Origin: Oscillospiraceae bacterium
GTDB taxonomy: Bacteria > Bacillota > Clostridia > Oscillospirales > Acutalibacteraceae
DNA length: 64,000 nt
Direction of reading: 5' to 3'
NCBI GenBank assembly: GCA_910574995.1
Contig: CAJTCS010000003.1
Coordinates: 1-64,000, forward strand
The notes under the pieces were generated by a model, which ran no database searches, was not told the DNA's origin, and saw only the letters and a list, made by a program, of their open reading frames with translations. Within the stretch, counting starts at the first letter, position 1, and each line of letters starts with the position of its first letter. Below, piece by piece: positions 26,515 to 64,000 of this stretch. A program made the position numbers and the translations under genes.

Positions 26515-26547
26515 TTTGCCATGGGGCCCAAAAAATCAGAAAGCGGC

Positions 26548-26576: not shown

Positions 26577-26583
26577 CTAGGCG

Positions 26584-26763: not shown

Positions 26764-26973
26764 ATGAACGGTACAGTTAAGTGGTTCAACGCAGAAAAGG
26801 GTTATGGCTTCATTTCCAACGACGAGGGCGGCGAGGACGTTTTTGTACACTTCTCCGCTATCCAGTCCGAGGGCTTCAAGACCTTGGAAGAAGGCCAGAA
26901 GGTCACTTTTGAGACCGAGCCCGACCCCAAGAACAGCGAGAAGCTGCGCGCTGTAAACGTGGTTAAGCTGTAA
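26764..26973 (+). CDS. Cold-shock protein (CspA family)
   Basis: A 69-residue OB-fold RNA chaperone: [17 protein letters not shown] with RNP1 KGYGFI and RNP2 VFVHF, full length. It would melt mRNA structure and is likely abundant, given the consensus promoter, its own leader and the terminator. ATG with GGAGG 9 nt upstream; longer frames from 26656 fall within the leader. Confidence 0.97.
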
Positions 26974-26994
26974 ATAGCGCCTACTGTGTTGCAA

Positions 26995-27031
26995 AAGGCC
27001 CGGGATCTGCAGGAAGCGGATCCCGGGCCTT
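26995..27031. terminator. Bidirectional terminator after csp
   Basis: A 13-bp perfect stem (AAGGCCCGGGATC/GATCCCGGGCCTT) between the convergent csp and MATE genes. Confidence 0.88.
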
Positions 27032-27037
27032 TGTGTA

Positions 27038-28366
27038 TCAATAGTGGTATTTTTTCTTTTTGCAGGCCAGGAAAACGGCCGTTGCCGCCGCAGCCATGGC
27101 TTCCGCCGCCACGATAGATAACCAGACGCCCTCTATGCCCCACAGCAGTGGGAAGAGTAGCACCGCCGCCACCTGGAACACCAGTGTGCGCAGGAACGCG
27201 ATTAAGGCGGAGGTGAGGCCGTCGTTAAGGGCGGTGAAGAAGGAAGACCCAAAAATGGCAAGCCCTGCAAAGAGGAACGAGAAGGAGTATATGCCAAAGG
27301 CGTGTACGGTCATGTGGTAAAGCCCCTGGTCATAGCGGACGAACAGCGCCGACAGGGGCTGCGCCAATAGCTCCGCCAGGGCCAGCATGGCGGCGGAGGA
27401 AGCCAGGATGAGTACCAGGCTTTTCCGGTACAGGCTATGTAGCTCCCCCTGGTTGCCCGCGCCGAAATGGAATCCCACCACCGGGGCAATCCCGGTGGAA
27501 TAGCCGATGAAAATGGACAGGAAGACCAGGTTTACATACATCAAGACGCCATAGGCGGCTATACCGTCTTCCCCGGCGTACTGGATAAGCTGCGCATTGT
27601 ACAGCATGCTGACAATGGACATGGAGATGTTGCTCATCAGCTCGGAAGAGCCGTTGGTACAGGCCTTCCACAAGGCGCGCCCATCAAGGGGGGCCTTGCG
27701 CAAGCGAAGCAAGCTGGTATTTTTCCTGGCAAAATAGAATAAAGGTATGACGCCGCCGATGAATTGGCTGATGGACGTGGCCGCGGCCGCCCCAGCCAGC
27801 CCCCAAGGCAGCACGGCGGTGAACAGGGCGTCCAAAGCCATGTTGGTGAAGCCAGCCGCCAGCGTTACCGCCAGGCCCAGTTGGGGCTTGGCCGCCGTGA
27901 TGAAAAAGCTTTGGAACTCATATTGCAGCATAAGCATAGGCAGGGACAGCAGGATGACCCTGCCGTATAACACGCAGCCCTCCAGCATGGGTCCATCGGC
28001 CCCCAGCCAGACGGCTACGGGGCGGATGAACACGAACCCCAGTATCGCGATAACTACACCAGAGGCCCCGCTGGCGTACACAAACAAAGAAAAAAGCTGC
28101 TGGGCGCGCTTGTTGTCCCCCTCCCCCAGGGTTTTGGCGATCAGGGCGCTGCCCCCGGTGCCGAACATGAAGCCCACCGCACCCAAAATCATCAAGAACG
28201 GCATGATGAAATTGACAGCCGCAAAGGGCGTTTTTCCCACAAAGTTGGACACGAAAAAGCCGTCTACCACGCCGTAAATAGAGGTGAAGACCATCATCAC
28301 CACAGATGGCAGGGTGAAACGGAACAGTTTTTGGAAATTGAAATGGTCGGAAAGCCGTATTTTCAT
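27038..28366 (-). CDS. MATE family efflux transporter
   Basis: A 442-residue, ~12-helix multidrug/Na+ or H+ antiporter. MATE features: LPSVVMMVFTSIYGVVDGFF at helix 1, MFGTGGSALIAKTLGEGDNK after helix 2, and GFHFGAGNQGELHSLYRKSL in the second half. Closest to the MepA-like clostridial group by pattern. CAGGAGGGG before ATG. It is 46 nt after a MarR-type regulator gene, which probably controls it. Substrate unknown. Confidence 0.93.
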   Translation of the reverse strand: MKIRLSDHFNFQKLFRFTLPSVVMMVFTSIYGVVDGFFVSNFVGKTPFAAVNFIMPFLMILGAVGFMFGTGGSALIAKTLGEGDNKRAQQLFSLFVYASGASGVVIAILGFVFIRPVAVWLGADGPMLEGCVLYGRVILLSLPMLMLQYEFQSFFITAAKPQLGLAVTLAAGFTNMALDALFTAVLPWGLAGAAAATSISQFIGGVIPLFYFARKNTSLLRLRKAPLDGRALWKACTNGSSELMSNISMSIVSMLYNAQLIQYAGEDGIAAYGVLMYVNLVFLSIFIGYSTGIAPVVGFHFGAGNQGELHSLYRKSLVLILASSAAMLALAELLAQPLSALFVRYDQGLYHMTVHAFGIYSFSFLFAGLAIFGSSFFTALNDGLTSALIAFLRTLVFQVAAVLLFPLLWGIEGVWLSIVAAEAMAAAATAVFLACKKKKYHY

Positions 28367-28412
28367 AGTCCCCTCCTGGTTTGTAAAAAAATATGGCGCA
28401 AGGGAACGCCTG

Positions 28413-28850
28413 TCAAAGCCTTTTGCACTTTTCCCGGAACATGGCCAGATAGCGTTTGGTAAGCCGCATGTACAGTTCCCGCTCCTCTGGGGCCCATTCC
28501 GTGAATATCTCGTTTTCGATCTCCATTACCCGCAAGGCTGTGCCCTTGGCCAGCTCCCGCCCCTTCTCGGTTAGGCACACCTGTTTCTTCCGGCCCTGGC
28601 CCGCCTCTAGATAGACGGCGCCTTCCTTTTCCAGCTTTCGTATGGCTGAATTGACCGTCTGCTTGCGTAAGCCGGACAGGGAAATGATCCGGCTTAACAG
28701 GCAGGCCCCGTCGAACAGGCAGATGGTGTACAGGATGATCATGGCGCTGTCCGCAAGCCCCAGCTTGCGGGTGGCCTCGTGGTAGGCCGCGTCTATCTCC
28801 GAGGTCAGCAGGTTAAAACGTTTTACCGGGGCGTTCGCGTGGTCTTCCAT
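28413..28850 (-). CDS. MarR family transcriptional regulator
   Basis: A 145-residue winged-helix repressor. The helix-turn-helix is SRIISLSGLRKQTVNSAIRK and the wing LEKEGAVYLEAGQGRKKQVC LTEKGREL. First gene of a two-gene unit with a MATE exporter, so it likely derepresses efflux when it binds a ligand. TAGGAGG before ATG. A perfect inverted repeat overlies its own promoter, implying autoregulation. Confidence 0.93.
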   Translation of the reverse strand: MEDHANAPVKRFNLLTSEIDAAYHEATRKLGLADSAMIILYTICLFDGACLLSRIISLSGLRKQTVNSAIRKLEKEGAVYLEAGQGRKKQVCLTEKGRELAKGTALRVMEIENEIFTEWAPEERELYMRLTKRYLAMFREKCKRL

Positions 28851-28870
28851 AAAAAATCCCTCCTAATCAA

Positions 28871-28919
28871 GTCCGAAATCGTACCTGTAAAGTATAGTAC
28901 GATTTCGGACAAAAGTCAA
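28871..28919 (-). promoter_or_regulatory. MarR-MATE promoter with a perfect operator
   Basis: Minus-strand TTGACT (28919-28914) and TATACT (28896-28891), 17-bp spacer. A 14-bp perfect inverted repeat (GTCCGAAATCGTAC ... GTACGATTTCGGAC, 28871-28884 and 28897-28910) brackets the -10 box; one arm fills the spacer and the other covers the start region. Ideal for MarR repression. Confidence 0.85.
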
Positions 28920-29172
28920 GGGGGCCTTCCCCATCTGGTAGGGATTTCCCCATGGGGGGATTTGCAGGGGAGGCGTGTACAAGTTGCAAAAGGGCGGCTG
29001 GGATGGAGGCTGGGGGGAGGGTCAGGAAAAGCTGGATTTATTGGGCGGAACCGGTTTTTGCGGTGGTTACAAAACTGAAACAAATGAGAAAAAGCTGCAA
29101 CTTTTCGGGTGAAAATAGGCAAATGACACAAAAAGCCCGGGGCGCTGAAAGGGAATTTTTCAGGTTTGCCAG

Positions 29173-29201
29173 TTGTAAAAACGGATTTCATCGTGTAAAA
29201 T
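29173..29201 (+). promoter_or_regulatory. Candidate oppA promoter
   Basis: TTGTAA and TAAAAT with a 17-bp spacer, ~70 bp before the oppA ATG. The remainder of 28920-29172 shows no gene. Confidence 0.6.
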
Positions 29202-29273
29202 GTCCCTATTGTGAATTGTGCGTGAACAGCGTATGACCACAAAATCTCATACCCAATCTAGGGGGAATTACCA

Positions 29274-31010
29274 ATGAAACGCAATAAGATCCTGGCGTTG
29301 GTCCTGGCTCTGCTGCTGATTTGCGGCACATTTGCCGCCTGCGGCAACGACAGCGGCAGCAGTACTGCCAGCACCCCGGCCAGCAAAGCGGATGACGGCG
29401 CCAGCACGCCCGAAAGCGCACCGGCTGACGGCGGCAACGACGCGGCGCCCTCCAACACCACGTTGACCGTGAACGCGGCCATGGAGCCCACTGGCCTGAA
29501 CACCCTGAACGCTACCTATTCTATTGAGTTCTCTATCTTCCGCCACCTGTATGAGAACCTGTACGTCCTTAACGACGAAGACCAGCCCGTGCCCGGCGCT
29601 GCCGAGACGGTGGACATCAACGAGGACAAGAGCGTGTTCACTTTCCACCTGCGTGAGGACGGCAAGTGGACAAACGGCGACCCTGTTACCGCCAACGACT
29701 TCTCTTTCGCTTGGCAGCAAGCCCTGAACCCCGATGTGGCCGCCGACTACGGTTATTTCCTGTACTTCATCAAAAATGCCGAGCCTTTCTTTAAGGGCGA
29801 GTGCACCTGGGAAGAGGTGGGCGTAAAGGTCATCGACGACCTGACCCTGGAGGTTACCCTGGACCATCCCATCCCCTATGCCGAGTTCCTGTTCTCCTTC
29901 GGCACCCTTTGCCCCATCAACCAGAAGTTCTATGAGGAAGTAGGCGCTGACAAATACAGCACCGAGGCCGAGTACTTCTGCACCAACGGCCCCTTCCAGC
30001 TGACCGAGTGGAACCATGACAGCAACATCCTCATGGTGAAGAACAACGATTTCCACGGCGCTGATGAGGTACAGGTAGAGGAAATCAACTGGAAAATCAT
30101 TACTGACGCCCAGGCGGCCCTGACCGAGTTCCTGTCCGGCGGCCTTGATATGGTCAACCTGTCCAACGGCGAACTCATCTCCCAGGCTGAGGCCCAGGGC
30201 TATGAGATCCAGAGCTATTCTGACGGTTCCGCTTTCTACATCTACTTCAACCACAGCAACCAGTACCTGCAGAATGCCAACCTGCGCAAGGCCCTGGCCC
30301 TTGGCTTCGACAAGGAAGGCATGATCCAGGCTGTGTACCAGAACGCCAACCAGCCCATGACCAGCTTTACCTGCCCCGCCGTGACCGGCTATGACGGAAA
30401 CACCACCTTCCAGTCTGGCCTGGAGGCTTGGAATAACGGCGAGGCCCTCACTCCCAAGAACGGCGACCCCGAGGCTGCCAAGAAGTACCTGGAGACGGCC
30501 CTGTCCGAGCTGGGCTGCACGGTGGAGGACCTGTCCGCCAACCTGTCCATCGACTGCGGCGACAGCCAGATTGCCGGCAACGAGGCTGCCTACTATCAGG
30601 AGCAGTGGAGGCAGAATCTGGGCATCGAAGTGACAGTAAATCCCATGCCCACCAAGCAGGGCTCTGCCAACCGGAAGAACGGCAACTATGTCATGTCCCT
30701 CACCGGCTGGGGCCCCGACTATGACGACCCCATGAGCTTCCTGGACCTGTGGGTATCCGACGGCGGCAACAACCAGACCTTCTATGCCAGCGAGGCCTAT
30801 GACAAGTTGATTGCCGACGCGACTATGGAGACCGACTTTGCCAAGCGCCAGGAGATATTCTACGAAGCTGAGAAGCTCATCGTGGAAGACCTGCCCGTGG
30901 CCCCTTCTTACTGGCGGTTCCCCAGCTACGCCTTGAGCGAGCATGTGGCCGGCGGCGTACACCGTTCTGTGTTCCAGGGCATCGACCTGGTACATGTCAC
31001 GCTGAAGTAA
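29274..31010 (+). CDS. oppA: Oligopeptide ABC transporter, substrate-binding lipoprotein
   Basis: A 578-residue family-5 solute-binding protein. Lipobox TFAAC (Cys ~24) after the signal peptide, then a Ser/Thr/Ala linker. The family signature is near residue 115 (FTFHLREDGKWTNGDPVTAN DFSFAWQQ) with SYWRFPSYALSEHV at the end, the pattern of the OppA/DppA peptide-binding group. It is anchored outside the membrane and hands peptides to OppBC. GGGGG before ATG. Separated from oppB by a terminator and a new promoter, so it can be made in excess. Confidence 0.95.
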   Translation: MKRNKILALVLALLLICGTFAACGNDSGSSTASTPASKADDGASTPESAPADGGNDAAPSNTTLTVNAAMEPTGLNTLNATYSIEFSIFRHLYENLYVLNDEDQPVPGAAETVDINEDKSVFTFHLREDGKWTNGDPVTANDFSFAWQQALNPDVAADYGYFLYFIKNAEPFFKGECTWEEVGVKVIDDLTLEVTLDHPIPYAEFLFSFGTLCPINQKFYEEVGADKYSTEAEYFCTNGPFQLTEWNHDSNILMVKNNDFHGADEVQVEEINWKIITDAQAALTEFLSGGLDMVNLSNGELISQAEAQGYEIQSYSDGSAFYIYFNHSNQYLQNANLRKALALGFDKEGMIQAVYQNANQPMTSFTCPAVTGYDGNTTFQSGLEAWNNGEALTPKNGDPEAAKKYLETALSELGCTVEDLSANLSIDCGDSQIAGNEAAYYQEQWRQNLGIEVTVNPMPTKQGSANRKNGNYVMSLTGWGPDYDDPMSFLDLWVSDGGNNQTFYASEAYDKLIADATMETDFAKRQEIFYEAEKLIVEDLPVAPSYWRFPSYALSEHVAGGVHRSVFQGIDLVHVTLK

Positions 31011-31039
31011 GCATGCGGCTGGTTTAAAACGACGAATTT

Positions 31040-31100
31040 AATACCGTGTAAGGCAGCGAGGGCATTCAGACCATTCCGGATGCTCTCGCCCTGCGGTATT
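31040..31100 (+). terminator. Terminator between oppA and oppB
   Basis: A long interrupted stem (ATACCG/CGGTAT outer, GCGAGGGCAT/ATGCTCTCGC inner) followed by TTTATTGGTTTT. It would limit read-through into oppBCDF. Confidence 0.75.
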
Positions 31101-31145
31101 TATTGGTTTTATTGTGGGAAAGTTGTAAAGCGGGAAAATTCCCTA

Positions 31146-31174
31146 TTGAAAACCGTTGCAAAAAATACTATAAT
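31146..31174 (+). promoter_or_regulatory. Candidate promoter of oppBCDF
   Basis: TTGAAA and TATAAT with a 17-bp spacer. The ~250-nt leader that follows contains a 16-bp palindrome (31201-31216) and a 9-bp stem AGCTTTTCT/AGAAAAGCT (31225-31251), with no gene. Confidence 0.7.
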
Positions 31175-31430
31175 AAAGGCAGGACAACTGAAGATGCGCA
31201 AAACCGGGCCCGGTTTCCACGCACAGCTTTTCTAAAAAAACCAGAAAAGCTGAGGGGCCATTGCCTGGCAAAGCACTGATCATACGGAACATTCAATTTG
31301 TGCCAAGGGCGGCAGGTGGAAAGTCTCCTTTAGCACATTTTTTATATCCGTTCTTTTTGTGGGAAAACTAAAGCGGCTGGGCCGCTTGGAAATATAAAAT
31401 TCAAAAATGAGGAAAGGGGGAAATTGCCTT

Positions 31431-32375
31431 ATGGCTAAGTATATACTTAAGAGGATAGGCTACTCCATTGTCACGCTTTTCGTGCTCATCACGCTTACGT
31501 TCTTCATGATGCGCCTGCTGCCCGGCGACCCGTTTACAGGTGAAAAGCAGCTGCCCGAAAAGACCATGGAAGCCCTGAACGCCAAGTATGGCCTGGACAA
31601 GCCCTTGGTTACGCAGTATATCATGTACCTTGGCAATTGCCTGCACGGAGACCTGGGGCTTTCGTTGAACACGAACCGCCCTGTCACTACCATTATCAGC
31701 GAGTCCTTCGCCTATTCCTTCGACCTGGGTATCCGCGCCGTTATCATGGCTTTTGTCCTGGGCGTGCTGCTGGGCAGTATCGCGGCTATCAAACGAGGTA
31801 AGGCCACAGACACGGTGTGCATGCTTGTTGCCTTGATAGGCGTCTCGGTCCCCAGCTTTATTGTGGCGGCTGTGCTGCAATATTACCTGGGCCTGCAGCC
31901 CTACCTGGCCTCCAACAAGACCGTGCAGCTTTTCGCCGTAACAGGCTGGGGCCCGGCCAATTCTAAAATATTGCCCGTTTTTGCGTTGGCTTTCGGCTCT
32001 TTGGCGCAGATATCCCGGCTGATGCGTACCAGCATGCTGGACGTGCTGGGGCAGGACTATATTAAGACTGCCAAGGCAAAGGGGCTGTCCCAGGGCGCCA
32101 TTATTTGGAAGCATGCCATACGCAATGCCATTATGCCCGTGGTCACGGTATTGGGCCCCATTACGGCCAGCGTGCTGACAGGCGCCTTTGTAGTGGAGAA
32201 CGTGTTCGCTATCCCCGGCTTAGGCCGCTATTTCGTACAGGGTATCCAGAACTATGACTATACGATGATCTCAGGCACCACTATTTTCTATGGCGCGTTC
32301 CTTATCATCGCCAACCTGGTCGTGGACCTGGCTTATGGATTTATCGACCCGAGAGTCAAGCTGGAGGAGGGCTAA
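31431..32375 (+). CDS. oppB: Oligopeptide ABC transporter permease OppB
   Basis: A 314-residue BPD_transp_1 permease with six membrane helices. The OppB/DppB N-terminus YILKRIGYSIVTLFVLITLT FF is clear, and the ATPase-contacting EAA loop is DYIKTAKAKGLSQGAIIWKH A. ATG at 31431 preceded by AAAGGGGG; an ATG at 31407 would place that site inside the gene. Followed by oppC after 4 nt. Confidence 0.95.
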   Translation: MAKYILKRIGYSIVTLFVLITLTFFMMRLLPGDPFTGEKQLPEKTMEALNAKYGLDKPLVTQYIMYLGNCLHGDLGLSLNTNRPVTTIISESFAYSFDLGIRAVIMAFVLGVLLGSIAAIKRGKATDTVCMLVALIGVSVPSFIVAAVLQYYLGLQPYLASNKTVQLFAVTGWGPANSKILPVFALAFGSLAQISRLMRTSMLDVLGQDYIKTAKAKGLSQGAIIWKHAIRNAIMPVVTVLGPITASVLTGAFVVENVFAIPGLGRYFVQGIQNYDYTMISGTTIFYGAFLIIANLVVDLAYGFIDPRVKLEEG

Positions 32376-32379
32376 GGAT

Positions 32380-33342
32380 ATGGCGAATATAGGTAAAATT
32401 GACAAGAGCCGCTTTGGCTGGGTAGGGGCTGACCCGGAACACCGGGAAGGCCTTAGCCGCCCTAGCATCACCTATTGGCGGGACGCCATGAAGCGGCTGG
32501 CCAAAAACCGCGTGGCCCTGGTGTGCCTGATCATCATCGTCCTGCTCATCCTGGCCTGCGCCCTGCTGCCCCTGTTTTCTTCTTTCAGCAGCCGCGAGCA
32601 GCACCTGGCCGAAACCAACAAGGGCTTCTTTTTCCAGTGCCAGGACGACCGCTATGAGGGAAAGAACCTGGTGCATATTTTCGGCACGGACAAGCTGGGC
32701 CGGGATATGTGGACCCGTACCTTTGAAGGCGGGCGCGTCTCTTTGATGATCGCTTTTGCGGCGGTGTTCATCAACCTGATTATAGGTATGATCTATGGCG
32801 GCGTTTCCGGGTATTTCGGCGGCGTGGTGGATAATATCATGATGCGTATTGTGGAAGTTGTCAACGGCATCCCGTACCTGATCGTGGTGGTGCTGCTGAT
32901 GCTGGTGCTGCCCAAGGGCATCTTTACCATGGTGGTAGCCTATGCCACCGTAGGCTGGACGGGTATGGCCCGGCTGGTACGCGGGCAGGCGCTGTCCCTG
33001 AAAAACCAGGAATTTGTGGTGGCCGCGGAGGCCATGGGCGCGCGCCCGGCCCGTATCATTGCCCGGCATCTGCTTCCCAACGCCCTTTCGGTCATCATCA
33101 TCAATGTGACCCTGGCTGTGCCCAGCGCCATTTTTACAGAGGCTTTCCTGTCCTATATCGGTTTGGGCGTGCCGGTGCCCCAGCCGTCCTGGGGCATGCT
33201 GGCCCAGGAGGGGGCTGCTGTGTTCCAGGTGTACCCCAGCAAGCTATGGATACCGGCCATTGCCATCAGTATCACCATGCTTTCGTTCAACCTGTTGGGC
33301 GACGGCCTGCGGGACGCCTTTGACCCGCGCCTGAGACGCTGA
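32380..33342 (+). CDS. oppC: Oligopeptide ABC transporter permease OppC
   Basis: A 320-residue partner permease. A soluble N-terminal stretch precedes the first helix (VALVCLIIIVLLILACALLP), and there is a large extracytoplasmic insert (HIFGTDKLGRDMWTRTFEGG), the OppC_N feature. The EAA loop is EFVVAAEAMGARPARIIARH. The ATG at 32380 has GGAGGAGG. Forms a heterodimer with OppB. Confidence 0.95.
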   Translation: MANIGKIDKSRFGWVGADPEHREGLSRPSITYWRDAMKRLAKNRVALVCLIIIVLLILACALLPLFSSFSSREQHLAETNKGFFFQCQDDRYEGKNLVHIFGTDKLGRDMWTRTFEGGRVSLMIAFAAVFINLIIGMIYGGVSGYFGGVVDNIMMRIVEVVNGIPYLIVVVLLMLVLPKGIFTMVVAYATVGWTGMARLVRGQALSLKNQEFVVAAEAMGARPARIIARHLLPNALSVIIINVTLAVPSAIFTEAFLSYIGLGVPVPQPSWGMLAQEGAAVFQVYPSKLWIPAIAISITMLSFNLLGDGLRDAFDPRLRR

Positions 33343-55749: not shown

Positions 55750-56023
55750 ATGATTTTGACAGCATTATCAAGCGCATGACCGTGACCCATGTAGGGCCGG
55801 AGGACTACACTGGCGAAGATGGAATTCTGTACTGCGGGAAAAGGACAAACCCGCTGCACCCAAGACCAGACGCCAGGATAAGCCCCGCTTCATTGTGACC
55901 CGTGAATACAGCGGTAGCCAGAGTATGAGGGCCGCTTTTGAGCAGGCCATTGAATCCCAGGCTTGCGGGCAGTTTGAATCCTGGCTTGAAAAGAGGGAGA
56001 GCGATCGCAAAAGTCAAGAGTAA
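55746..56023 (+). pseudogene. Fused remnants of ICE DnaC-like and TnpW-like genes
   Basis: Codons 1-32 (MNDFDSIIKRMTVTHVGPED YTGEDGILYCG) match the start of the Tn1549-type ATP-binding DnaC-like protein. At about 55838 this switches into another frame reading PAAPKTRRQDKPRFIVTREY and AFEQAIESQACGQFESWLEK, the pattern of the transposon protein TnpW, up to the stop at 56023. The ATPase domain and everything in between is missing, so neither gene is functional. Its start overlaps the end of the rep remnant, as in the intact element. Confidence 0.78.
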
Positions 56024-56059
56024 ATGCAGAAAAAATCAGAAAATTTTTTTGAAGGCGGA

Positions 56060-57097
56060 TCAAGCCGCTTCCGCAAGGTATCTTTCAAACAGCGATCCGG
56101 ACGTTTCAAAGCCTAAAATCTCGCGCGGATAGTTATTGATCCACGTTTCAACCCGCGCGACGTATTCGGCGGATACTTGCCGGAAGTCCGTTCCCTTCGG
56201 AAGAAAACGGCGGATCATCTTGTTTATATTCTCGTTTGTCCCGCGTTCGTATGCGCTGTACGGGTGGCAATAGTAAACGGTCGTGCGCTTCCGCTTGCCC
56301 CTGCCGAAGATCGAAGTTTCTATTCCGGCGCAATCCGCAAATTCCGAACCGTTATCCACGGTAATGCTTTTGAATATCTGCGGGAAGCGCCGCCCGTACT
56401 TCCGTTCAAGCCTGTTTAACGCCTTCACGACGCTGGCGGCTGTGTGATCCGGCATTTTGATTATAATTTCCTGCCGCGTCAACCGTTCCGAAAGAACAAG
56501 CAAGGTTTCCTTCGTTTTCTTCTTCCCCTCGACGCAATCCATTTCCCAATGTCCGAAGGTTTCCCGATCGTTTATTTCCTGCGGGCGGTTCTCTATGCTT
56601 TCGCCTTTCGGCGCGCGGGCTGGCTTCGACTTCACTTTTTCATATTTCCGCTTGCGCTTCCCCTTCTGCGGAAGGTTCTTCCGCTCCAGCCGAAGGAAAA
56701 CGCCCTTGTCTATGTAATTGTATATCGTCTTTTCGCTGATCTCTGTTTGGAAGGTCAGCCCCAGCCGCTTGATTTCTCCGACGACGGCGGCGGGGGAAAA
56801 GCCTTCGTCCGCGATCTTCTTTTCGATGAACTCCGCCAATTCGTGATCGTCGCCGATCTTTAGGTCGCCGCCCTTCGCCTTCAACTGTTCGTCGTACTTC
56901 TGCTGGGCGATTTCCGGCGAATAGCGTTCTTCGGTCGTTAGGTCGGAATTCAAATGCGTGTACGTTCCGCGCTTTAGCTCCCTGTAAATTGTTGTATTGT
57001 GAACGTGCAGCCGATCCGCAATCTGTAAGGGCTTCAAGCCCTCTTTCAACGCCTTCTCTATTTTTAGGCGGTCTGTCCACGTCAAGTGTTTGTGCAT
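56060..57097 (-). CDS. IS30-family transposase
   Basis: A 345-residue DDE transposase, full length. N-terminal HTH (KPLQIADRLHVHNTTIYREL KRG), and catalytic residues Asp in GHWEMDCVEGKKK, Asp in ITVDNGSEFAD and Glu in ERGTNENINKMIRRFLPKGT. ATG at 57097 with TTGGAGG. No matching IS30 terminal repeats are evident on either side. It lies at the left edge of the prophage next to a regulator and shares its codon use, so it may be the phage's own mobility gene rather than an inserted IS. Confidence 0.92.
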   Translation of the reverse strand: MHKHLTWTDRLKIEKALKEGLKPLQIADRLHVHNTTIYRELKRGTYTHLNSDLTTEERYSPEIAQQKYDEQLKAKGGDLKIGDDHELAEFIEKKIADEGFSPAAVVGEIKRLGLTFQTEISEKTIYNYIDKGVFLRLERKNLPQKGKRKRKYEKVKSKPARAPKGESIENRPQEINDRETFGHWEMDCVEGKKKTKETLLVLSERLTRQEIIIKMPDHTAASVVKALNRLERKYGRRFPQIFKSITVDNGSEFADCAGIETSIFGRGKRKRTTVYYCHPYSAYERGTNENINKMIRRFLPKGTDFRQVSAEYVARVETWINNYPREILGFETSGSLFERYLAEAA

Positions 57098-57150
57098 TGT
57101 TATTCCTCCAAAAAGAAAAAGGGCGGCATATCCTGCCGCCCTCCGTGAAA

Positions 57151-57417
57151 TCAATGTTTATTTCCGTATGCGTCTAATTGTTCGATCGTGTCCGGATCGC
57201 TCAATATATCCCGTAATGAACAGCCCAGCGCGTTGCAAAGTTTAAGAATTGTTACCAGCTTCGCCCCGTTCAGATCGCGCCCGCCGCGTTCATAGTCTTG
57301 CAGAATGCGGACGGAAATTCCCGCCGCGTTTGCAAGCTGCGATTGTGACATTCCCGCCGCTTTTCGTGCTGCTTGTAGCTTTTCGTTCCTGTACGCCACT
57401 TTTACGCTGATTTCCAT
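57151..57417 (-). CDS. Xre-family regulator
   Basis: An 88-residue HTH protein: ARKAAGMSQSQLANAAGISV RILQDYERGGRDLNG is a Cro/C1-type domain. Start at 57417 (MEISVKVAYRNEK); the longer frame from 57438 runs into promoter sequence. Probably a prophage repressor. Sits 53 nt before the transposase gene on the same strand and may co-regulate it. Confidence 0.85.
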   Translation of the reverse strand: MEISVKVAYRNEKLQAARKAAGMSQSQLANAAGISVRILQDYERGGRDLNGAKLVTILKLCNALGCSLRDILSDPDTIEQLDAYGNKH

Positions 57418-57431
57418 TTGCGCCCGCCCCC

Positions 57432-57461
57432 TTGACAAATTCTTGTTTTATCGGTTATAAT
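57432..57461 (+). promoter_or_regulatory. Plus-strand promoter antisense to the small ORF
   Basis: TTGACA and TATAAT with an 18-bp spacer, directed rightward. With the terminator at 57753-57771 it would give a ~300-nt RNA antisense to the 38-codon gene and its leader. No plus-strand gene is credible in this stretch. Confidence 0.5.
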
Positions 57462-57496
57462 AAAGACAACGGGCGGGGAAACCCGCTGTCCGGTGT

Positions 57497-57613
57497 TTAG
57501 GATTGCTTGTTCTTCTTGTTAGGCTTAATGCTGATTGTGATACGCTCCACCGTTTCACTCTCTAAAGCCTTTTTAAGAAGGTCAAGCAATTCTTTTATTT
57601 GCTCTTCGGTCAT
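57497..57613 (-). CDS. 38-residue small protein
   Basis: An ORF beginning MTEEQIKELLDLLKKALESE and ending ITISIKPNKKNKQS, with AAAGGGGGTG 4 nt before ATG. One amphipathic helix followed by a short beta/basic tail. It is located between a strong promoter (57684-57712) and the Xre gene on the same strand, so it is probably translated. Family not recognised. Confidence 0.6.
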   Translation of the reverse strand: MTEEQIKELLDLLKKALESETVERITISIKPNKKNKQS

Positions 57614-57683
57614 TTCTGCACCCCCTTTCCGGTGGTGTATTCTCCTTTCTTCGTTTACTCGGCTTCCCCTTGCCTGTGATTAT

Positions 57684-57712
57684 ATTATACTGCATTTGCC
57701 GTATAAAGTCAA
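57684..57712 (-). promoter_or_regulatory. Promoter of small ORF and Xre gene
   Basis: TTGACT (57712-57707) and TATAAT (57689-57684) with a 17-bp spacer on the minus strand. Confidence 0.8.
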
Positions 57713-57752
57713 TAGCTTTTCAAGAAAAAACCGGAAAAAGATAAAAAAATTA

Positions 57753-57771
57753 CGGCGGGACAACCCCGCCG
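57753..57771. terminator. Bidirectional terminator
   Basis: Stem CGGCGGG/CCCGCCG with CTTTTT on the plus side and seven T on the minus side. Ends the second Xre gene and the putative antisense RNA. Confidence 0.8.
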
Positions 57772-57776
57772 CTTTT

Positions 57777-58022
57777 TCATTCCTCCATATCTAAAAGCCA
57801 AAGCACCGAAACGCCCAGCACCTTTGCAAAGACTTTCAATTCAAAGTCGGAAACGAAGCGCGTTCCGATCTCAATTCTTGATATGCTGTCCCGCTCCATG
57901 TTTACGCCCGCAATTTGCAGCTTCGCGGCTAAATCCTCTTGCCGCATACGCTGAACAACGCGCGCTTGCCGGATACGGTCGCCGGAAATGTTCTTCTTCC
58001 CGTTATAGTCGTATATCTTCAC
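57777..58022 (-). CDS. Xre-family regulator
   Basis: An 81-residue HTH protein: DRIRQARVVQRMRQEDLAAK LQ and RDSISRIEIGTRFVSDFELK VFAKVLGVS. GTG start with GGGGGCGG upstream. The second Cro/C1-type regulator within 600 bp; probably the opposing partner in a lysogeny switch or a regulator of the divergent HIRAN gene. Confidence 0.85.
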   Translation of the reverse strand: MKIYDYNGKKNISGDRIRQARVVQRMRQEDLAAKLQIAGVNMERDSISRIEIGTRFVSDFELKVFAKVLGVSVLWLLDMEE

Positions 58023-58082
58023 CTTGCCGCCCCCTTTCGTGCGGAAGATTTCTGAACGGTGTGTAAATATTCCGCTTTATTC

Positions 58083-58111
58083 TTGATTTTACCGCTTCGA
58101 TCGTCTATAAT
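58083..58111 (+). promoter_or_regulatory. Promoter of the HIRAN gene
   Basis: TTGATT and TATAAT with a 17-bp spacer, plus strand, diverging from the Xre gene. Confidence 0.8.
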
Positions 58112-58176
58112 TGTGTTAAAGGTCAGAATGGCGCTTTGCAGCTAAATTTTTTCTACCTTGAAGGGAAGGTAACAGC

Positions 58177-58761
58177 ATGAAAAAATCTGTTATTGTTATG
58201 TGGATCGTCGCGGCGTTGTTCCTTGTTTCTGCTTTCCCGATGTTTGCCGAAGGGAACGTCGGCGCGGGCGTATCCGGAATTGCGATCGCCGCCGTTCTCG
58301 CGGCTTTCGGTTTCGTCAAAAGCAAGAAGGCGAAGGACGGCGCGCCCGCTGCTTCGGCGGAAAAGCGCGTTGAAGCTCCCGCCGCGCGCGGCGCGTCTGT
58401 AAATAGTACGCCAGCAGCCGAACCGGAACTTCCGTTTGAATTTCTCAAAACGAACATTGCTGGCGTTACGTTTAAGGACGGGCGGAAAAGCCGACAAACG
58501 ATTCTTCGCCGCCTGTATTGGAAGGACGCGCCCTTCGATCACGAAGAAGCGGAAGTAACCCTTGTCCGCGAAGAATTTGAAGGGAAGCCCGCTTTTGCCG
58601 TTATGCTCAACGGCGAAAAAGCCGGATACGTCCCCGCCGAACACGTACAATACATTGCGGATAATTACGAACGCTGCGACGGCGTAACGCGCATTGAAGC
58701 GCATTGCGGAAAAGAAGATATTTACGGCGCGGAAATAACAATTCGTTTTCGGAAAGTCTGA
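58177..58761 (+). CDS. HIRAN-domain membrane protein
   Basis: A 194-residue protein. Two N-terminal membrane segments (VIVMWIVAALFLVSAFPMFA, GIAIAAVLAAFGFV), an Ala/Lys linker, then a C-terminal HIRAN-like domain (EAEVTLVREEFEGKPAFAVM LNGEKAGYVPAEHVQYIA). HIRAN domains bind DNA ends or stalled-fork DNA in other proteins; membrane tethering is odd. It has its own promoter and terminator and opposes the lysis genes, like a phage moron expressed in the lysogen. GGGAAGG before ATG. Confidence 0.75.
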   Translation: MKKSVIVMWIVAALFLVSAFPMFAEGNVGAGVSGIAIAAVLAAFGFVKSKKAKDGAPAASAEKRVEAPAARGASVNSTPAAEPELPFEFLKTNIAGVTFKDGRKSRQTILRRLYWKDAPFDHEEAEVTLVREEFEGKPAFAVMLNGEKAGYVPAEHVQYIADNYERCDGVTRIEAHCGKEDIYGAEITIRFRKV

Positions 58762-58772
58762 ACCAAACAAAA

Positions 58773-58809
58773 AAATCCCCCGCAAGGCGTGAAGCCCTGC
58801 GGGGGATTT
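58773..58809. terminator. Bidirectional terminator
   Basis: A 12-bp stem (AAATCCCCCGCA/TGCGGGGGATTT) after the HIRAN gene and past the lysis genes, A-rich on one side and T-rich on the other. Confidence 0.85.
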
Positions 58810-58891
58810 CTCATATCAGCGGGCGGAATGCCCGCCGCCGTCAAGCCGCTTTGCTGAAAGAGGAAAAGCGCAATACGGCGCGATCGGTGGT

Positions 58892-59224
58892 TTAGTCGCC
58901 TTCCGGCTCGGTCGTGTCAAGAATGCCGATGTACGATGGAAGATTGAAAACGGCGGCTTCTATCAGCTTGTCCAAGCTGTCCGCGTCGATCTTGAAGCCC
59001 TTGTTTGCCAAAAATTCAATAACAAAGCGCTTTTTCTCTTCGCCCCTGCCGCTTCCGGTGTAAATCTGTTCGGCGGCTTCGACGGCGGCTTCCGCCCACA
59101 ATTTGATTTTCTCGAACTGTGCGACGGAAGTTTTGCTTTTGATCCACGGGATCACAAAAGCCGAAATGATAGCGGCAATCAGTGCCGCCAGCGCTTCAAT
59201 AATGGTAGTAATGTCAAAAGTCAT
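58892..59224 (-). CDS. Phage holin, LLH-type
   Basis: A 110-residue protein with one N-terminal membrane helix (IIEALAALIAAIISAFVIPW I) followed by a long amphipathic helix and a lactobacillus-holin-like C-terminus (EEKKRFVIEFLANKGFKIDA). It would open the membrane for the endolysin encoded upstream. ATG at 59224 with GAGG; longer frames to 59347 are not supported. Confidence 0.85.
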   Translation of the reverse strand: MTFDITTIIEALAALIAAIISAFVIPWIKSKTSVAQFEKIKLWAEAAVEAAEQIYTGSGRGEEKKRFVIEFLANKGFKIDADSLDKLIEAAVFNLPSYIGILDTTEPEGD

Positions 59225-59339
59225 GTTGAAAACCTCGCTTTCTTGTTCTGTGTTTATTGTGTATCCTCTTTCGATCGCACGGAAAACGCACGGGACGCGC
59301 TGAAGATCGTGCGCGTGTGTTCTTCGTGTAATTCGCGTG

Positions 59340-60350
59340 TTATGCAAGCGTCAGATCGTCCACGTTCACCGCCGCCACAACGATGTTTCCGAAGGTAATA
59401 ACGGCGCGCTTTCCGCTGATTTCCTTTACAACGTGTACGCGGTCGTACACATAGGAAGCAAGGCTTCCCCCTGTGTAGGTGGGCGCGCCCTGCTTCAAGC
59501 GGACGCGGCTTCCCTCTGTGATCTTCGCTGCTGCGGGCGCGCTGGGCGCTCCGTAGATGTCCGCCGCGTCAACCCAGCCATATACGTTTGATCCGCCGCC
59601 CTTTTCCGCGATAAGGTGGTAAGGGTGTTTTCCGTTGTGCGTCTGCGTGATTTTTGCTTTGCCCGCTTTGCACGGCTTCCCGCTCGAAGCGTTCGCGGAA
59701 ACATAGTGCTTTGTTCCTTTGAAGTCCACAATATCGCCGACGCTGAATTTCCCTTCGGAAGTGTTCGGCTTCGTAGTGCTGCTATTTCCCGCGGCGTTTC
59801 CGGTGTACTCGATATACGGCAATTTCCCGTGTTTCGTCCACGTGCGGGCGTTGTATCCGCTCTTTCTGCCGATGTTCGCAACGGCGGTAATCTGCACGTT
59901 ATTTTCCCAGCGCGGCGTACACTCAACGCCCAGCCCGTTCCCGATATAAACGCCGATATGCCCTTCGCACCAAAGCGCTTCGCCGATCTCAACGTGCGAA
60001 AAATCCGTCGATACGTTCGCGCATTTTGTAATCATTGTGTCCGCGCCGATGTCCGGAACGCCGTTGACGGCGTATTCTGCGCCGCCGTAGCAATCGGATT
60101 TATTGCCGTTCCAGCCCCACAAAACCCCTTTGATAAGGCAAACGCAATCAAAGCCGAATGTATCAGCGCTGGCGGCGTTTATCATTGCAACGCGGGAAGA
60201 TTGTTTGTTGTAGTCGTGATTGCTGGTATATCGCTTTTTGTTCGCCGCCGTCATAGGCGCGCCGAAGCACCCCATAACATAAAGCGTCTTGTAATTCTTC
60301 GCAATGTCGATCAGCTTTTCCACGAACTCGTTACTTTTCATTTTTGCCAT
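59340..60350 (-). CDS. Endolysin: NlpC/P60-like peptidase with SH3-like domains
   Basis: A 336-residue lysin. The N-terminal ~200 residues hold a Cys/His peptidase pattern: catalytic Cys in TFGFDCVCLIKGVLWG and His in EGHIGVYIGNGLGVECTPRW. The C-terminus has two SH3b-like wall-binding modules (GDIVDFKGTKHYVSANASSG, GSRVRLKQGAPTYTGGSLAS). It would cut peptidoglycan at lysis. AAAGGAGG before ATG at 60350. Upstream of the holin on the same strand. Confidence 0.88.
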   Translation of the reverse strand: MAKMKSNEFVEKLIDIAKNYKTLYVMGCFGAPMTAANKKRYTSNHDYNKQSSRVAMINAASADTFGFDCVCLIKGVLWGWNGNKSDCYGGAEYAVNGVPDIGADTMITKCANVSTDFSHVEIGEALWCEGHIGVYIGNGLGVECTPRWENNVQITAVANIGRKSGYNARTWTKHGKLPYIEYTGNAAGNSSTTKPNTSEGKFSVGDIVDFKGTKHYVSANASSGKPCKAGKAKITQTHNGKHPYHLIAEKGGGSNVYGWVDAADIYGAPSAPAAAKITEGSRVRLKQGAPTYTGGSLASYVYDRVHVVKEISGKRAVITFGNIVVAAVNVDDLTLA

Positions 60351-60387
60351 TGTGAAAACCTCCTTTGAAATGCGAAACGGGAACGGC

Positions 60388-60696
60388 TCATTCGTGCCGC
60401 TCCCGCTCCTGTACCTCTTCGATCCGGTCAATTCGTTTGTGTGCCTGTTTCGCGCTCTCTTCCACGGCGGTAAGGCGGGAAACGAATTCCGTATTCGTCT
60501 TTCGCTGTTCCCGCTGCTCGGCTTTAATATCGTCGATCCCGCCTTTGATATAGCCGATTTCCGTTAAAACGGTCGCGTCTGCCTTCGCGTCGCCTTCCTT
60601 GTCTTTGTCCCTGTTCCGGACGAAAGCAAGATAACCGAACACGATGGCGCAAACAGCGGATACAATCGAAAGCACGGTCATAAATGTTTCGTTCAT
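60388..60696 (-). CDS. Small membrane protein with coiled coil (lysis accessory?)
   Basis: A 102-residue protein: an N-terminal membrane helix (TVLSIVSAVCAIVFGYLAFV) then a charged coiled coil (IDDIKAEQREQRKTNTEFVS RLTAVEESAKQA). Like XhlA-type or spanin-like proteins in being a helix plus coiled coil beside holin and lysin, but with the order reversed relative to XhlA. GGGAGG before ATG at 60696. Confidence 0.75.
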   Translation of the reverse strand: MNETFMTVLSIVSAVCAIVFGYLAFVRNRDKDKEGDAKADATVLTEIGYIKGGIDDIKAEQREQRKTNTEFVSRLTAVEESAKQAHKRIDRIEEVQERERHE

Positions 60697-60701
60697 GCGG
60701 T

Positions 60702-61229
60702 TTACCTCCCTTCGACTTTTTCCCATTGCCACAAAGAAGGCGTGTCGGGCGGATATACGCAATCGGGCATATCTGCTTTTGCAAGATACACGCCGCCTTT
60801 GTAACTGTAATACAAGCCGGAAGCGACGTTTACGACGATCCCCGCCGTTTCCGGATAGGGGATCGGATCGTCAATCGTGCCGGAAGCTGCAAGCTCCACC
60901 AGCCTGTAATATGCGAAGGTCGTTTCGACGGGATACGCCGCCGCGTTTGATGTATGCGGCGCGACAACCTCGAAATAACGGTCGCCGTACTTGAAAATTT
61001 CGCCGATCGTGTTGTATGCGTGATTGTCCTTGAAGCTGTCGTATTCGATAAGCTCCGCCGATTGAAGGATCATGCCGTCGTCAATGATCTTCGTTCCCGC
61101 TGCGCGATCCTGCACGATCTGCGCCTTGAAGGACAATGCAAGAAGGGCGGCGGATTTCTCTTCCGCCGTCCTTAATTGTTGAACGTCTTTTTTCATCTGT
61201 GTATTGCCGTTTTTTCCCTTGATAATCAT
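60702..61229 (-). CDS. Phage tail-end protein with carbohydrate-binding-like C-terminus
   Basis: A 175-residue protein. The C-terminal ~50 residues (GLYYSYKGGVYLAKADMPDC and SLWQWEKVEG) have the aromatic pattern of type 5/12 carbohydrate-binding modules found on phage tail fibres. The N-terminus resembles XkdW/tail-associated small proteins only vaguely. Start overlaps the stop of the variable tail protein (ATGA). Confidence 0.7.
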   Translation of the reverse strand: MIIKGKNGNTQMKKDVQQLRTAEEKSAALLALSFKAQIVQDRAAGTKIIDDGMILQSAELIEYDSFKDNHAYNTIGEIFKYGDRYFEVVAPHTSNAAAYPVETTFAYYRLVELAASGTIDDPIPYPETAGIVVNVASGLYYSYKGGVYLAKADMPDCVYPPDTPSLWQWEKVEGR

Positions 61230-62965
61230 TCAAACGAACCCCCGATCCCCGATACCCAGCACGAAGTCAGCGCGTCGCCGCGCGCGACGGTTACGCGGAT
61301 ATTCAATCCGCATTGTGCCGAAGTATTCGTTTTATTTGTGAACACGTGCGCCACGCCCTGTATTACGGCGTTCGTGCAATCCTCCCAAACGGGCGAAGCG
61401 TCAAAAGGATTGTTGCATACCTCGACTTTGAATTCGCCGCCAGCGGGAATTTCTCTGTTCACGCTCACATTGCAGCGTGTCGGCTGCGTGTCCGCTTCCA
61501 GCGGTTCGGAAAGCACGATCACAAAGCCGGAAATCGACTTCGTAAACGTAAGCGTCCGTGTGGCGCTGTTTCCGACGTTATCCGTTGCCGTGATCGTCAG
61601 CGTATGCGCTCCGTTTGAAAGCGCCGTGAAATTGTTTCCGGTAACTGCTGCCGCAAGCGTCGCGCCCAGCGTGACGTTGTTTTTCGTCGCGGTCGTTTTG
61701 TTGTCCACCTTTTCAACGACGTTCACCACGTCATTGTCCGGATCGGTCACGCTGTAATTATAGGTGAAGCCCGCCGCCTTCGTCCCTAAATTCGCATTGC
61801 TTCCGGAAATCGCGGGCGGCTGATTGTGAATTACGGCAATATCGCCGCTGGTGGTGTACGCGGAATAATTGCCGTAACTGTCTTTCGCGCGGACGCGGTA
61901 TTTTAACGTATTCCACGCCGTCGATACCGCTTCCGTAAACGTCCGCGACGCGGACGCTTGAACTTGCGTCCACGCTCCGCTGTTGTATGAACGCTCGAAG
62001 CAGTACGTCAGCGCGTCGCCGTCCGGATCGGTCGCCGCCGCGCAAGAAATATTAATATTGTTTCCGCTGTACGCCGTGGCGGGCGCTGTAATTCCGGAAG
62101 GCGCTGTCGGCGCGGAATTGTAGATTATAGTATAATTGCCCGCGCTGTTCGTGGTATCAGATACCAAGATAGAAGATTTCAGATTACAAAGCGGGCGAAC
62201 GCCGCTGTTCCCGCCGCAAGCGCTGTAGTAGTTCAACGCGCCGTCCGTGTAGACGCGGCGGACGCTGCAGGCGTTCGAGAAATAAGGCGTTCTAAGCCAC
62301 CAATACCAGCCCTTCGTCGTTGCGAAGTTGCTGCTTGTGTATCCGTCCGCATTGCTCACGCATTCCGCCGTGGGATATGCGACGCGGGAAGCGTCGTTGC
62401 TGAACAATGCCAGCCGTGAACCTTCGGCGATACTGTTTTCGTTTGCAAGTCCCACTTCGGTGGTGGACGCAAGAAACATTTTCGCGTTAAAGGTTTCGTA
62501 ACTGCCGCCGTCCGTCGAAGATTTAACGACGGTCAGCGTTGTGGTTAAAAGCTCCGCAACGAACTTCGGATCAAGCATTGCAAGGAAGCCCGCCCACGCC
62601 GTGTACGGATTATATGTAACGTGTGTGCTTTTCGTCGTCGGCGCTTGATCTGCGCTGTGCTTTGCGCTGTACCAATTTCCCGCCGTCGCGTTGCTGTTCA
62701 GCCATTGCAAAAGGTTTGAATGAATGTGTCTGTTGTTGCCGTAGCTCTTCCGGTTACTGTCGCTGTTGTTCGGCTCTTTTGCGTCCGAAGCCATGATTTG
62801 AATAATCTTTTCAGCGATCAGCGTTACCGAATTCGCGGGGTAGCCGCTGTGGTTCATGTCTGCAACCTTGAAAACGATCTTCGCCCCGAACCGCGATTGA
62901 TACGCGGAAAGAACCGGAACTTCGATCTTGTCGCCCACCGACAAGCTGCTTAATGCTTTTGACAT
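61226..62965 (-). CDS. Tail/receptor-binding protein with DGR-like variable domain
   Basis: A 579-residue protein, likely displayed on the phage particle. The N-terminus starts VGDKIEVPVLSAYQSRFGAK; residues ~90-290 form a DUF6273/C-type-lectin-like domain ending GWYWWLRTPYFSNACSVRR and GNSGVRPLCNL, as in known DGR target proteins. After it come two Ig/fibronectin-like modules (from SAPTAPSGITAPATAYSG, and PPAISGSNANLGTKAAGFTY). The GVRP end is internal, not at the C-terminus. GGAGGAAAAG before ATG. Lies 20 nt after the reverse transcriptase gene. Confidence 0.82.
   Translation of the reverse strand: MSKALSSLSVGDKIEVPVLSAYQSRFGAKIVFKVADMNHSGYPANSVTLIAEKIIQIMASDAKEPNNSDSNRKSYGNNRHIHSNLLQWLNSNATAGNWYSAKHSADQAPTTKSTHVTYNPYTAWAGFLAMLDPKFVAELLTTTLTVVKSSTDGGSYETFNAKMFLASTTEVGLANENSIAEGSRLALFSNDASRVAYPTAECVSNADGYTSSNFATTKGWYWWLRTPYFSNACSVRRVYTDGALNYYSACGGNSGVRPLCNLKSSILVSDTTNSAGNYTIIYNSAPTAPSGITAPATAYSGNNINISCAAATDPDGDALTYCFERSYNSGAWTQVQASASRTFTEAVSTAWNTLKYRVRAKDSYGNYSAYTTSGDIAVIHNQPPAISGSNANLGTKAAGFTYNYSVTDPDNDVVNVVEKVDNKTTATKNNVTLGATLAAAVTGNNFTALSNGAHTLTITATDNVGNSATRTLTFTKSISGFVIVLSEPLEADTQPTRCNVSVNREIPAGGEFKVEVCNNPFDASPVWEDCTNAVIQGVAHVFTNKTNTSAQCGLNIRVTVARGDALTSCWVSGIGGSFE
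62204..62281 (-). other. Candidate DGR variable repeat (VR)
   Basis: About 26 codons in which some 15 positions are NNC (TTC, AAC, TGC, AGC, CGC, TAC, GGC), each reachable from AAC by changes at the first two bases only, interspersed with framework codons for V, T-D-G-A-L and A. This is what adenine-targeted mutagenesis of a template gives. No near-identical template copy was found in the window. Confidence 0.6.
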
Positions 62966-62985
62966 TTCTTTTCCTCCTTCGGTTT

Positions 62986-64000
62986 TTAGTGATTTTCAAA
63001 ACTGCCGAATACGTCGCAATACTCCGATATATACCCGCAAAAATAGCTTTTGTGGTAGTACGGGCATTCCCTGCACGGTATTTCGCCGCAAGGCAAGATC
63101 GGCGGCGCGTCGTTTTCCTTTTCTTCAATCCCGAAAAGGCTTTTGTAATATTGATCCGTTCGCCGTATCAAGTGATAGCAATTCCCCTTTGAAGCGTGTC
63201 CTCTCCAGCTTTGATAGGATTGTTCGATCGTCTTTTGGTCGATCTTTCCCGCCGCTTTCAGTCCGGCAAATTTCTTCAACTTCCGCTTCATGTTGTTTTT
63301 GCTGCGGCGGCGCACCTTCCGGATCACTTTTCCCGTTTCCGTCAAGTACGTGTGAAAGCCAAGAAAATCAATGCCGTTCTTCAATGGGTAGATATTTGTT
63401 TTCGCGTTCAGCGAAAGCCCGCGCGCTGCGACGAACGCTTCAATTTCCTTCCGGCAATGCCGCAAGTATTCTTTATCCTCATGGATCAAGAAGAAGTCGT
63501 CCATATAGCGCCCGTAATATTTGATACCCAGCTTTTCCTTGATGAAATGATCCAGCCCGTCAAGGTAGAGAAGGGCGAAAAGCTGTGAAGTTTGATTTCC
63601 GATCGGTATTCCGACGTTTCCTTCCGTGCTGTCGATGATAAGATCGACAAGCCACAAAACGTCCGGATCGGTTATCTTCTCGCGGATTAAGGTTTTCAGA
63701 ACGTCATGCCGGATCGAATAGAAGTATTTTGAAATATCGCCCTTCAAAATCCAGCCGTCAACGCCGTTCTTCCTGTAAAACCTCCGCAAGAACTCTTGAA
63801 GCCGCCCCAGCCCGTCGTGCGTACCTTTCCCCACCTGTGAAGCGTAATTGTCGCGTATGAACGATCGCGTCAAGATCGGTTCAAGCACATTGTCGCAAAG
63901 CGCGTGTTGAACCACTTTATCCTTGTAGCTGTTCGACATAACGACGCGCTTCTTCGGTTCGTAAACCTCGAACGTGTTATACGGGGACATGGTGTATTTC
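62986..64000 (-). CDS. Reverse transcriptase, DGR-type (5' end outside window)
   Basis: At least 338 residues, open to the right edge, so the N-terminus is missing. Palm motifs: VYEPKKRVVMSNSYKDKVVQ, GDISKYFYSIRHDVL, GIPIGNQTSQLFALLYLDGL and GRYMDDFFLIHED. The (I/L)GNxTSQ form of motif 4 is characteristic of diversity-generating retroelement enzymes, not of retrons or group II introns (QG). The C-terminus has an unusual Cys-rich tail (PCGEIPCRECPYYHKSYFCG), a possible metal site. It is followed on the same strand by the variable tail protein. Confidence 0.88.
   Translation of the reverse strand, partial: KYTMSPYNTFEVYEPKKRVVMSNSYKDKVVQHALCDNVLEPILTRSFIRDNYASQVGKGTHDGLGRLQEFLRRFYRKNGVDGWILKGDISKYFYSIRHDVLKTLIREKITDPDVLWLVDLIIDSTEGNVGIPIGNQTSQLFALLYLDGLDHFIKEKLGIKYYGRYMDDFFLIHEDKEYLRHCRKEIEAFVAARGLSLNAKTNIYPLKNGIDFLGFHTYLTETGKVIRKVRRRSKNNMKRKLKKFAGLKAAGKIDQKTIEQSYQSWRGHASKGNCYHLIRRTDQYYKSLFGIEEKENDAPPILPCGEIPCRECPYYHKSYFCGYISEYCDVFGSFENH

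What the first reader, a model, noticed from the sequence alone, without database searches (positions are those of the whole stretch)
61226..64000. Candidate diversity-generating retroelement in a Firmicute prophage
Seen: a reverse transcriptase with GIPIGNQTSQ and YMDD-type motifs stands 20 nt before a tail protein with a WWLR...GVRP domain. Known: DGRs pair an RT of this type with a target gene holding a variable repeat and need a template repeat and usually an Avd protein. Inferred: this is a DGR with gene order RT then target, so TR and Avd should lie upstream of the RT beyond position 64000.
Basis: partly seen in the sequence, partly recalled or inferred. Interest (0 to 1): 0.85.

Follow-up and report, generated by a model that had tools for sequence, protein, structure and literature searches.

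The report
Real phage mutation cassette, recently broken
This is a genuine phage system that rewrites one of its own surface-protein genes at chosen letters, of a kind already described, but in this bacterium a deletion has removed most of a helper gene that such systems normally need.

Summary
Beyond the window edge, about 170 nt upstream of the reverse transcriptase (RT) start, lies a 102-bp template repeat (TR, contig 64324-64425). It pairs with a variable repeat (VR, 62189-62290) in the target gene; all 15 mismatches fall on TR adenines (chance 9e-10). A metagenomic phage contig is identical over 8,589 bp except for 21 bases: 20 in the VR, all at TR adenines, and one in the TR. So the cassette was recently active in this lineage. 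A 4.39-kb deletion joins the tape-measure gene to the last 47 codons of avd; 82 of 83 scorable relatives keep an uninterrupted avd. A second deletion of about 2.0 kb joins capsid to tail-protein gene, and the early genes are absent nearby. The prophage is a remnant of a phage close to published phage nd12; the target is a 'tentaclin'. Most likely the DGR no longer works, since Avd was essential in a reconstituted DGR (PMC12875486). Help from a second DGR in this genome was not tested. New member of a known kind; modest interest.

The parts
62986..64000 (-). DGR reverse transcriptase, part inside the window; whole gene 62986-64152 on contig C3 (388 aa). Beyond the window edge on the same contig and strand follow TR 64324-64425, avd 3' fragment 64454-64594, truncated tape-measure gene 64595-66878, and the capsid/tail-protein fusion 67517-68637.
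   Evidence: RVT_1 E 5e-17; phrog_1423 E 1.2e-135; YMDD present; neighbours:
61226..62965 (-). Target gene, tentaclin: DUF6273 then Ig-like part, 579 aa
   Evidence: DUF6273 E 2.5e-32; 78.6% identical to the nd12 target over 579 of 579 residues
62189..62290 (-). Variable repeat, 102 bp, inside the target gene in its 5' half
   Evidence: 15 mismatches to the TR, 15 at TR adenines; 20 of 21 differences from phage contig L092 lie here
56006..64000 (-). Left part of the prophage remnant, which runs on to about C3 73479
   Evidence: L160 matches 64594-56006 at 99.76%

Best explanation
A phage DGR with a tentaclin target sits in a decayed prophage. In the intact ancestor the TR RNA was copied by the RT with its partner Avd, adenines were misread, and the copy replaced the VR in the target gene, changing a lectin-like, probably receptor-binding domain. 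Shown here: TR, VR, A-only differences, lineage-specific TR bases appearing in the matching VR, and VR change between otherwise identical phages. Inferred: the cDNA mechanism (known from Bordetella phage BPP-1) and the binding role. In this genome avd was then cut to its last 47 codons by a deletion, so the cassette has most likely stopped and the VR is frozen; that last step is inference from the gene loss plus the published need for Avd in another DGR.
For: TR/VR with 15 of 15 mismatches at adenines. Window against L092: 20 of 21 differences in the VR, all at TR adenines (21 in 8,589 bp). At non-adenine sites where TRs of two lineages differ, both VRs carry their own TR's base in 65 of 68 cases over ten pairs of five cassettes (pairs are not independent). 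avd cut in the window but uninterrupted over at least 90 residues in 82 of 83 scorable relatives. About 4.39 kb missing against L036, L037, L049, L054; the near-identical contig L156 runs on past the breakpoint; missing block and second avd not found in the own genome. In PMC12875486 (passages) loss of Avd cut DGR repair to about 1e-9.
Against: No reads, expression or activity data. The deletion could be an assembly error (disfavoured). A second DGR on contig C9 has an Avd-like ORF that might help. The need for Avd is shown for BPP-1, not for this family. dN/dS does not show decay of the cut genes.
Confidence: 0.84

Rival explanations
1. The deletions are assembly errors; the strain carries an intact prophage with a working DGR.
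For: The two sides of junction B match two different contigs of one metagenome sample that are 72% alike where they overlap, as a chimera would. The junction has no exact match in viral contigs.
Against: Two separate junctions, each with no more than about one shared base by eye, which assemblers that join by overlap would not make. The missing 4.39-kb block and an intact avd were not found elsewhere in the genome (one search had no positive control of its own).
Confidence: 0.1
2. The cassette still works, with the Avd-like protein of the second DGR on contig C9 acting in trans.
For: C9 has RT, TR, VR and an Avd-like ORF, 18 of 20 TR/VR mismatches at adenines. RT, TR and the region between them are intact here.
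Against: The C9 protein shows no significant similarity to seven Avd proteins of this family (best E 0.17) and the RTs are 36% identical.
Confidence: 0.04
3. The RT is a retron, group II intron or defence RT and the repeat is a coincidence.
For: Sub-threshold matches to group II intron, retron and Drt models, as most RTs would give.
Against: No model reaches its cut-off (best 122.8 bits against 300). TR/VR pairs in 68 of 83 scorable relatives and Avd in 82 of 83. Closest solved chain 8ub7_A, E 2.4e-45, against 2.8e-18 for the best intron RT; that 8ub7 is the BPP-1 DGR enzyme is recalled.
Confidence: 0.01

Closest known systems
Phage nd12 DGR (OR777946; PMC10743442)
   Same: Order avd, TR, RT, target; RT 88.7% identical over residues 1-344, target 78.6% over 579 of 579; TR and first VR with 14 of 14 mismatches at adenines.
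   Different: nd12 has a full-length avd match, complete head and tail genes and a second target gene; here avd is cut and those genes are deleted or absent. The paper reports no nd12-like prophage (section 2.1); this is a chromosomal remnant.
Faecalibacterium prophage DGRs with DUF6273 targets (Lelie, Roos, Pioen; PMC11792537)
   Same: DUF6273 target with the VR at the C-terminal end of that domain (passages); Lelie RT 45.8% identical.
   Different: More distant RT. I did not examine whether those prophages carry avd.
Bordetella phage BPP-1 DGR (features recalled, and passages)
   Same: RT, TR and VR with adenine-only differences; avd directly before the TR (avd here a remnant).
   Different: Target is DUF6273-type, not Mtd; VR in the 5' half of the gene; RT before the target; no conserved stem-loop after the VR in the 40 sequences compared.

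Membership tests
Diversity-generating retroelement | Near-identical TR and VR differing at TR adenines | tested here: met
   15 of 15 mismatches at adenines, chance 8.6e-10
Diversity-generating retroelement | RT gene next to the TR | tested here: met
   RT start about 170 nt after the TR; RVT_1 and phage RT families
Diversity-generating retroelement | VR inside a target gene | tested here: met
   VR in the DUF6273 part of the 579-aa target
Diversity-generating retroelement | TR-to-VR transfer of sequence | tested here: met
   65 of 68 lineage-specific non-A bases shared by own TR and VR, ten non-independent pairs; 20 of 21 differences from L092 in the VR
Diversity-generating retroelement | Accessory protein Avd or equivalent (usual, not universal; recalled) | tested here: not met
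   only 47 codons remain; no other copy of this avd in the genome. Membership rests on TR, VR and RT; this lowers the claim that it works now
Diversity-generating retroelement | Mutagenic homing observed in culture | not testable with these tools
   needs an experiment
Tentaclin (target protein) | N-terminal DUF6273 domain, VR within it, Ig-like domains after it | tested here: met
   DUF6273 aa 45-264; Ig models below cut-off; 78.6% identity over full length to the nd12 target
Tentaclin (target protein) | C-type lectin fold with the VR as a surface hairpin | not tested
   structure machine busy in nine tries; the paper modelled it for nd12 (passages)
Retron, group II intron or Drt defence RT | Match to the family's curated model at its cut-off | tested here: not met
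   best is group II RT at 122.8 bits against a cut-off of 300; the other seven models are also below theirs

The most novel reading that the evidence does not exclude
A DGR that keeps working after losing its own Avd, borrowing the distantly related Avd-like protein of a second DGR in the same chromosome, so that two retroelements share parts.
Probability: 0.04. Interest if true: 0.65.

Novelty: new member of a known kind. Interest (0 to 1): 0.36.

Why it matters
It confirms a DGR predicted from raw sequence alone, down to the position of the variable repeat. It gives a chromosomal home to an nd12-like phage, of which the describing paper reported no prophage. It offers a natural Avd-loss copy beside near-identical phage DNA with intact avd, which could show what Avd does outside Bordetella. 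It also warns that a DGR with intact RT, TR and VR may lack its helper gene, so screens for RT plus TR/VR alone would count it as functional.

Tried and rejected
Rejected: retron, intron or defence RT; intact cassette as first proposed (avd cut). The missing block gave no match elsewhere in the genome (the tool notes that an empty answer without a positive control shows nothing by itself), and this avd family gave only the fragment. The bAvd Pfam model found nothing in the own genome, but it scores the intact L036 Avd below its cut-off too (28 against 40 bits), so that search proved little.

Led nowhere: an inverted repeat after the VR as in BPP-1 was found in 17 of 40 sequences (96 of 800 shuffles), is absent in L037 and many others, and is not conserved as a stem. 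Junction sequence B has no exact match in viral contigs. The PDB search with the Avd alignment gave nothing. dN/dS against L036 or its sister contig L077 does not separate cut genes from whole ones (RT 0.080, target 0.225, terminase 0.078; capsid piece 0.192, tail-protein piece 0.048, tape-measure piece 0.161 and 0.173), which fits young deletions. In one search the rows named g6 and holin used a wrong frame and are not used. In one search the avd half failed through a wrong option of mine and was repeated. In one search the automatic VR pick landed on the TR; corrected.

Full report
What was claimed and what is there. The window is the first 64,000 bases of a 344-kb contig (C3) of a 3.45-Mb genome rated 99.98% complete, so I read on beyond the edge. 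The RT gene continues to a likely ATG at 64152. Blastn of the region against itself, with equal weight for all mismatches, gives a 102-bp repeat: 64324-64425 (TR) and 62189-62290 (VR). All 15 mismatches are at TR adenines: 10 to G, 4 to T, 1 to C. With 31 adenines in 102 bases the chance is 8.6e-10. The VR is the only other match of the TR in the genome at E up to 1.

A family of such cassettes. An RT search found 27 loci in genome contigs and 62 in viral contigs, 89 in all; 83 have at least 700 bp upstream of the RT and the other six were not scored. With a search that tolerates mismatches at adenines, 68 of these 83 have a TR/VR pair; over all 69 pairs found in the 89 loci, 968 of 988 mismatches are at TR adenines. 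That count is biased by the search; the window's own pair is not. Some of the 15 misses end before the target gene. An Avd-like match of at least 90 residues without a stop lies upstream in 82 of 83; the exception, L105, has a full-length match with a stop inside (longest piece 86 residues). Many of these loci are near copies of each other. Five further loci from the family or genus, taken from the 15 genomes with an RT match, all have RT, Avd match and a TR/VR pair (5 of 5).

Evidence that the cassette worked. Phage contig L160 (same contig as L092) matches the window from 64594 to 56006 with 21 mismatches in 8,589 bp. One search placed 21 over the first 7,606 bp: 20 in the VR, all at TR adenines, 1 in the TR at 64331, none elsewhere; so none lie in the remaining 983 bp. 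Two otherwise identical phages therefore differ in 20 of 102 VR bases. Where TRs of two lineages differ at non-adenine bases, both VRs carry their own TR's base in 65 of 68 cases over the ten pairs of five cassettes; for the window: L036 4 of 4, nd12 7 of 7, L049 9 of 9, L037 7 of 8. L037 and nd12 have TRs alike in 101 of 102 bases but VRs alike in 89 of 102, while the rest of the target gene is 95.7 and 98.2% identical on the two sides; 12 of these 13 VR differences are at an adenine of at least one of the two TRs. The authors of PMC10743442 had already compared VRs of nd12-like phages with one TR (passages), so this behaviour is known.

The TR change. The one TR difference from L092 makes an adenine at TR position 95, where L092, L093 and the eight other relatives compared have G, and the window VR also has G. 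So one of the 15 adenine mismatches is probably a later change in the TR rather than in the VR.

The broken helper gene. In L036, whose RT is 97% identical, a full avd lies before the TR; it matches the PHROG 'Avd protein of DGR' family (E 6.9e-29) and NCBI's Avd model below its cut-off (41.6 against 80 bits). In the window only its last 47 residues remain, all identical to L036. Directly before them stands a tape-measure gene, cut at the same point. Relatives carry about 4.39 kb between these points (4,387 bp in L036, 4,389 in L037). In L036 this block encodes the end of the tape measure, four further genes that match nd12 genes of the tail region, and the first part of avd. It has no match in the own genome, nor has a second copy of this avd. 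At the junction I see no base shared by both parents (by eye, relatives printed).

More decay. A second junction at C3 67900 joins the first 246 or so residues of the capsid protein to the later part of the major tail protein; about 2.0 kb is missing against L075, L076, L077 and L158. L158 matches the flanks with 2 mismatches in 5,580 bp and 2 in 3,306 bp. Similarity to these four relatives stops at C3 73478 to 73482. The early genes of nd12 (record 26504-32700 and 80-2593) have no match of their own on C3 40000-92499; the second DGR target gene, found in nd12 and L158, matches there only the first target gene, at 33%. The rest of the genome was not searched for them beyond the TR search. What is left is about 17.5 kb of a phage of which nd12's record holds 32.8 kb. 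The two sides of junction B match two contigs of one IMG sample (names 3300005461) that are only 72% alike where they overlap, so the parent was either a mosaic of the two or arose by their recombination.

The target. It belongs with the tentaclins: N-terminal DUF6273, which the describing paper modelled as a C-type lectin fold with the VR as a surface hairpin, then Ig-like domains (passages and one section of PMC10743442). In the window's protein the Ig models stay below cut-off; the closest PHROG is 'Hoc-like head decoration' (E 4.1e-186). PMC11792537 also places VRs at the C-terminal end of DUF6273 in Faecalibacterium phages (passages). [quoted passage not shown] I could not model the fold: the machine was busy in nine tries.

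What it probably does now. RT, TR, the region between them, the 3' end of avd next to the TR, and VR are intact; the Avd protein is not. In a reconstituted BPP-1 DGR, inactivating RT, Avd or TR cut activity to about 1e-9, lowest without avd (PMC12875486, passages). I therefore expect the VR to be frozen. The deletion is too young to show this in the sequence: dN/dS does not differ between cut and whole genes. A second DGR on contig C9 has its own RT, TR (18 of 20 mismatches at adenines), VR and Avd-like ORF; its Avd-like protein shows no significant similarity to seven Avd proteins of this family (best E 0.17), so help in trans seems unlikely.

Against my reading. No reads, culture or expression were available. 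Assembly error is disfavoured, not excluded. No second genome with the same junction was found: viral contigs 0 exact matches; of 29 genomes of the genus, own included, searched with 801 bp spanning the junction, 7 had a match at all and only the own genome matched along the whole length. One sister genome there, G308, has its tape-measure and avd-TR matches about 4.7 kb apart, as in intact phages.

Novelty. DGRs, tentaclin targets and this very phage group are in print. The new points are a chromosomal remnant of an nd12-like phage and a natural avd-loss copy next to near-identical phage DNA with avd. A search of the paper library for 'lacking avd' with DGRs listed one paper, the laboratory study above. 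That is too little to claim that Avd-loss copies have never been described.

Noticed in passing
Contig C9 64438-67669, minus strand (locus L010): A second DGR in the same genome: target with C-terminal VR 66446-66569, Avd-like ORF 65946-66365, TR 65784-65907, RT 64438-65619; 18 of 20 TR/VR mismatches at adenines.
   Followed up: partly
Contig C9 near 68636 (locus L010): In five relatives (L162, L163, L165, L166, L168) similarity to this second prophage starts just after its protease gene, and portal and protease have no match in the six loci searched: head and tail genes may be deleted here too.
   Followed up: partly
Contig C3 73522-75240, + strand: An ORF that reads like a large serine recombinase (by eye, no family search) starts some 40 bp beyond the point where prophage similarity ends; it may belong to the third deletion or to another element.
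   Followed up: no
Contig C3 64331: The single difference from phage contig L092 outside the VR is a new adenine in the TR itself.
   Followed up: partly
56060-57154, minus strand: An IS30-type transposase gene is shared with nd12 (82% identical) and L160. In L060 an RT fragment is joined to a similar gene.
   Followed up: partly
L049 (Oscillibacter sp. ER4 contig_40) and L036: nd12-like phage genomes with uninterrupted avd in named bacterial assemblies, a possible host lead for this phage group.
   Followed up: partly
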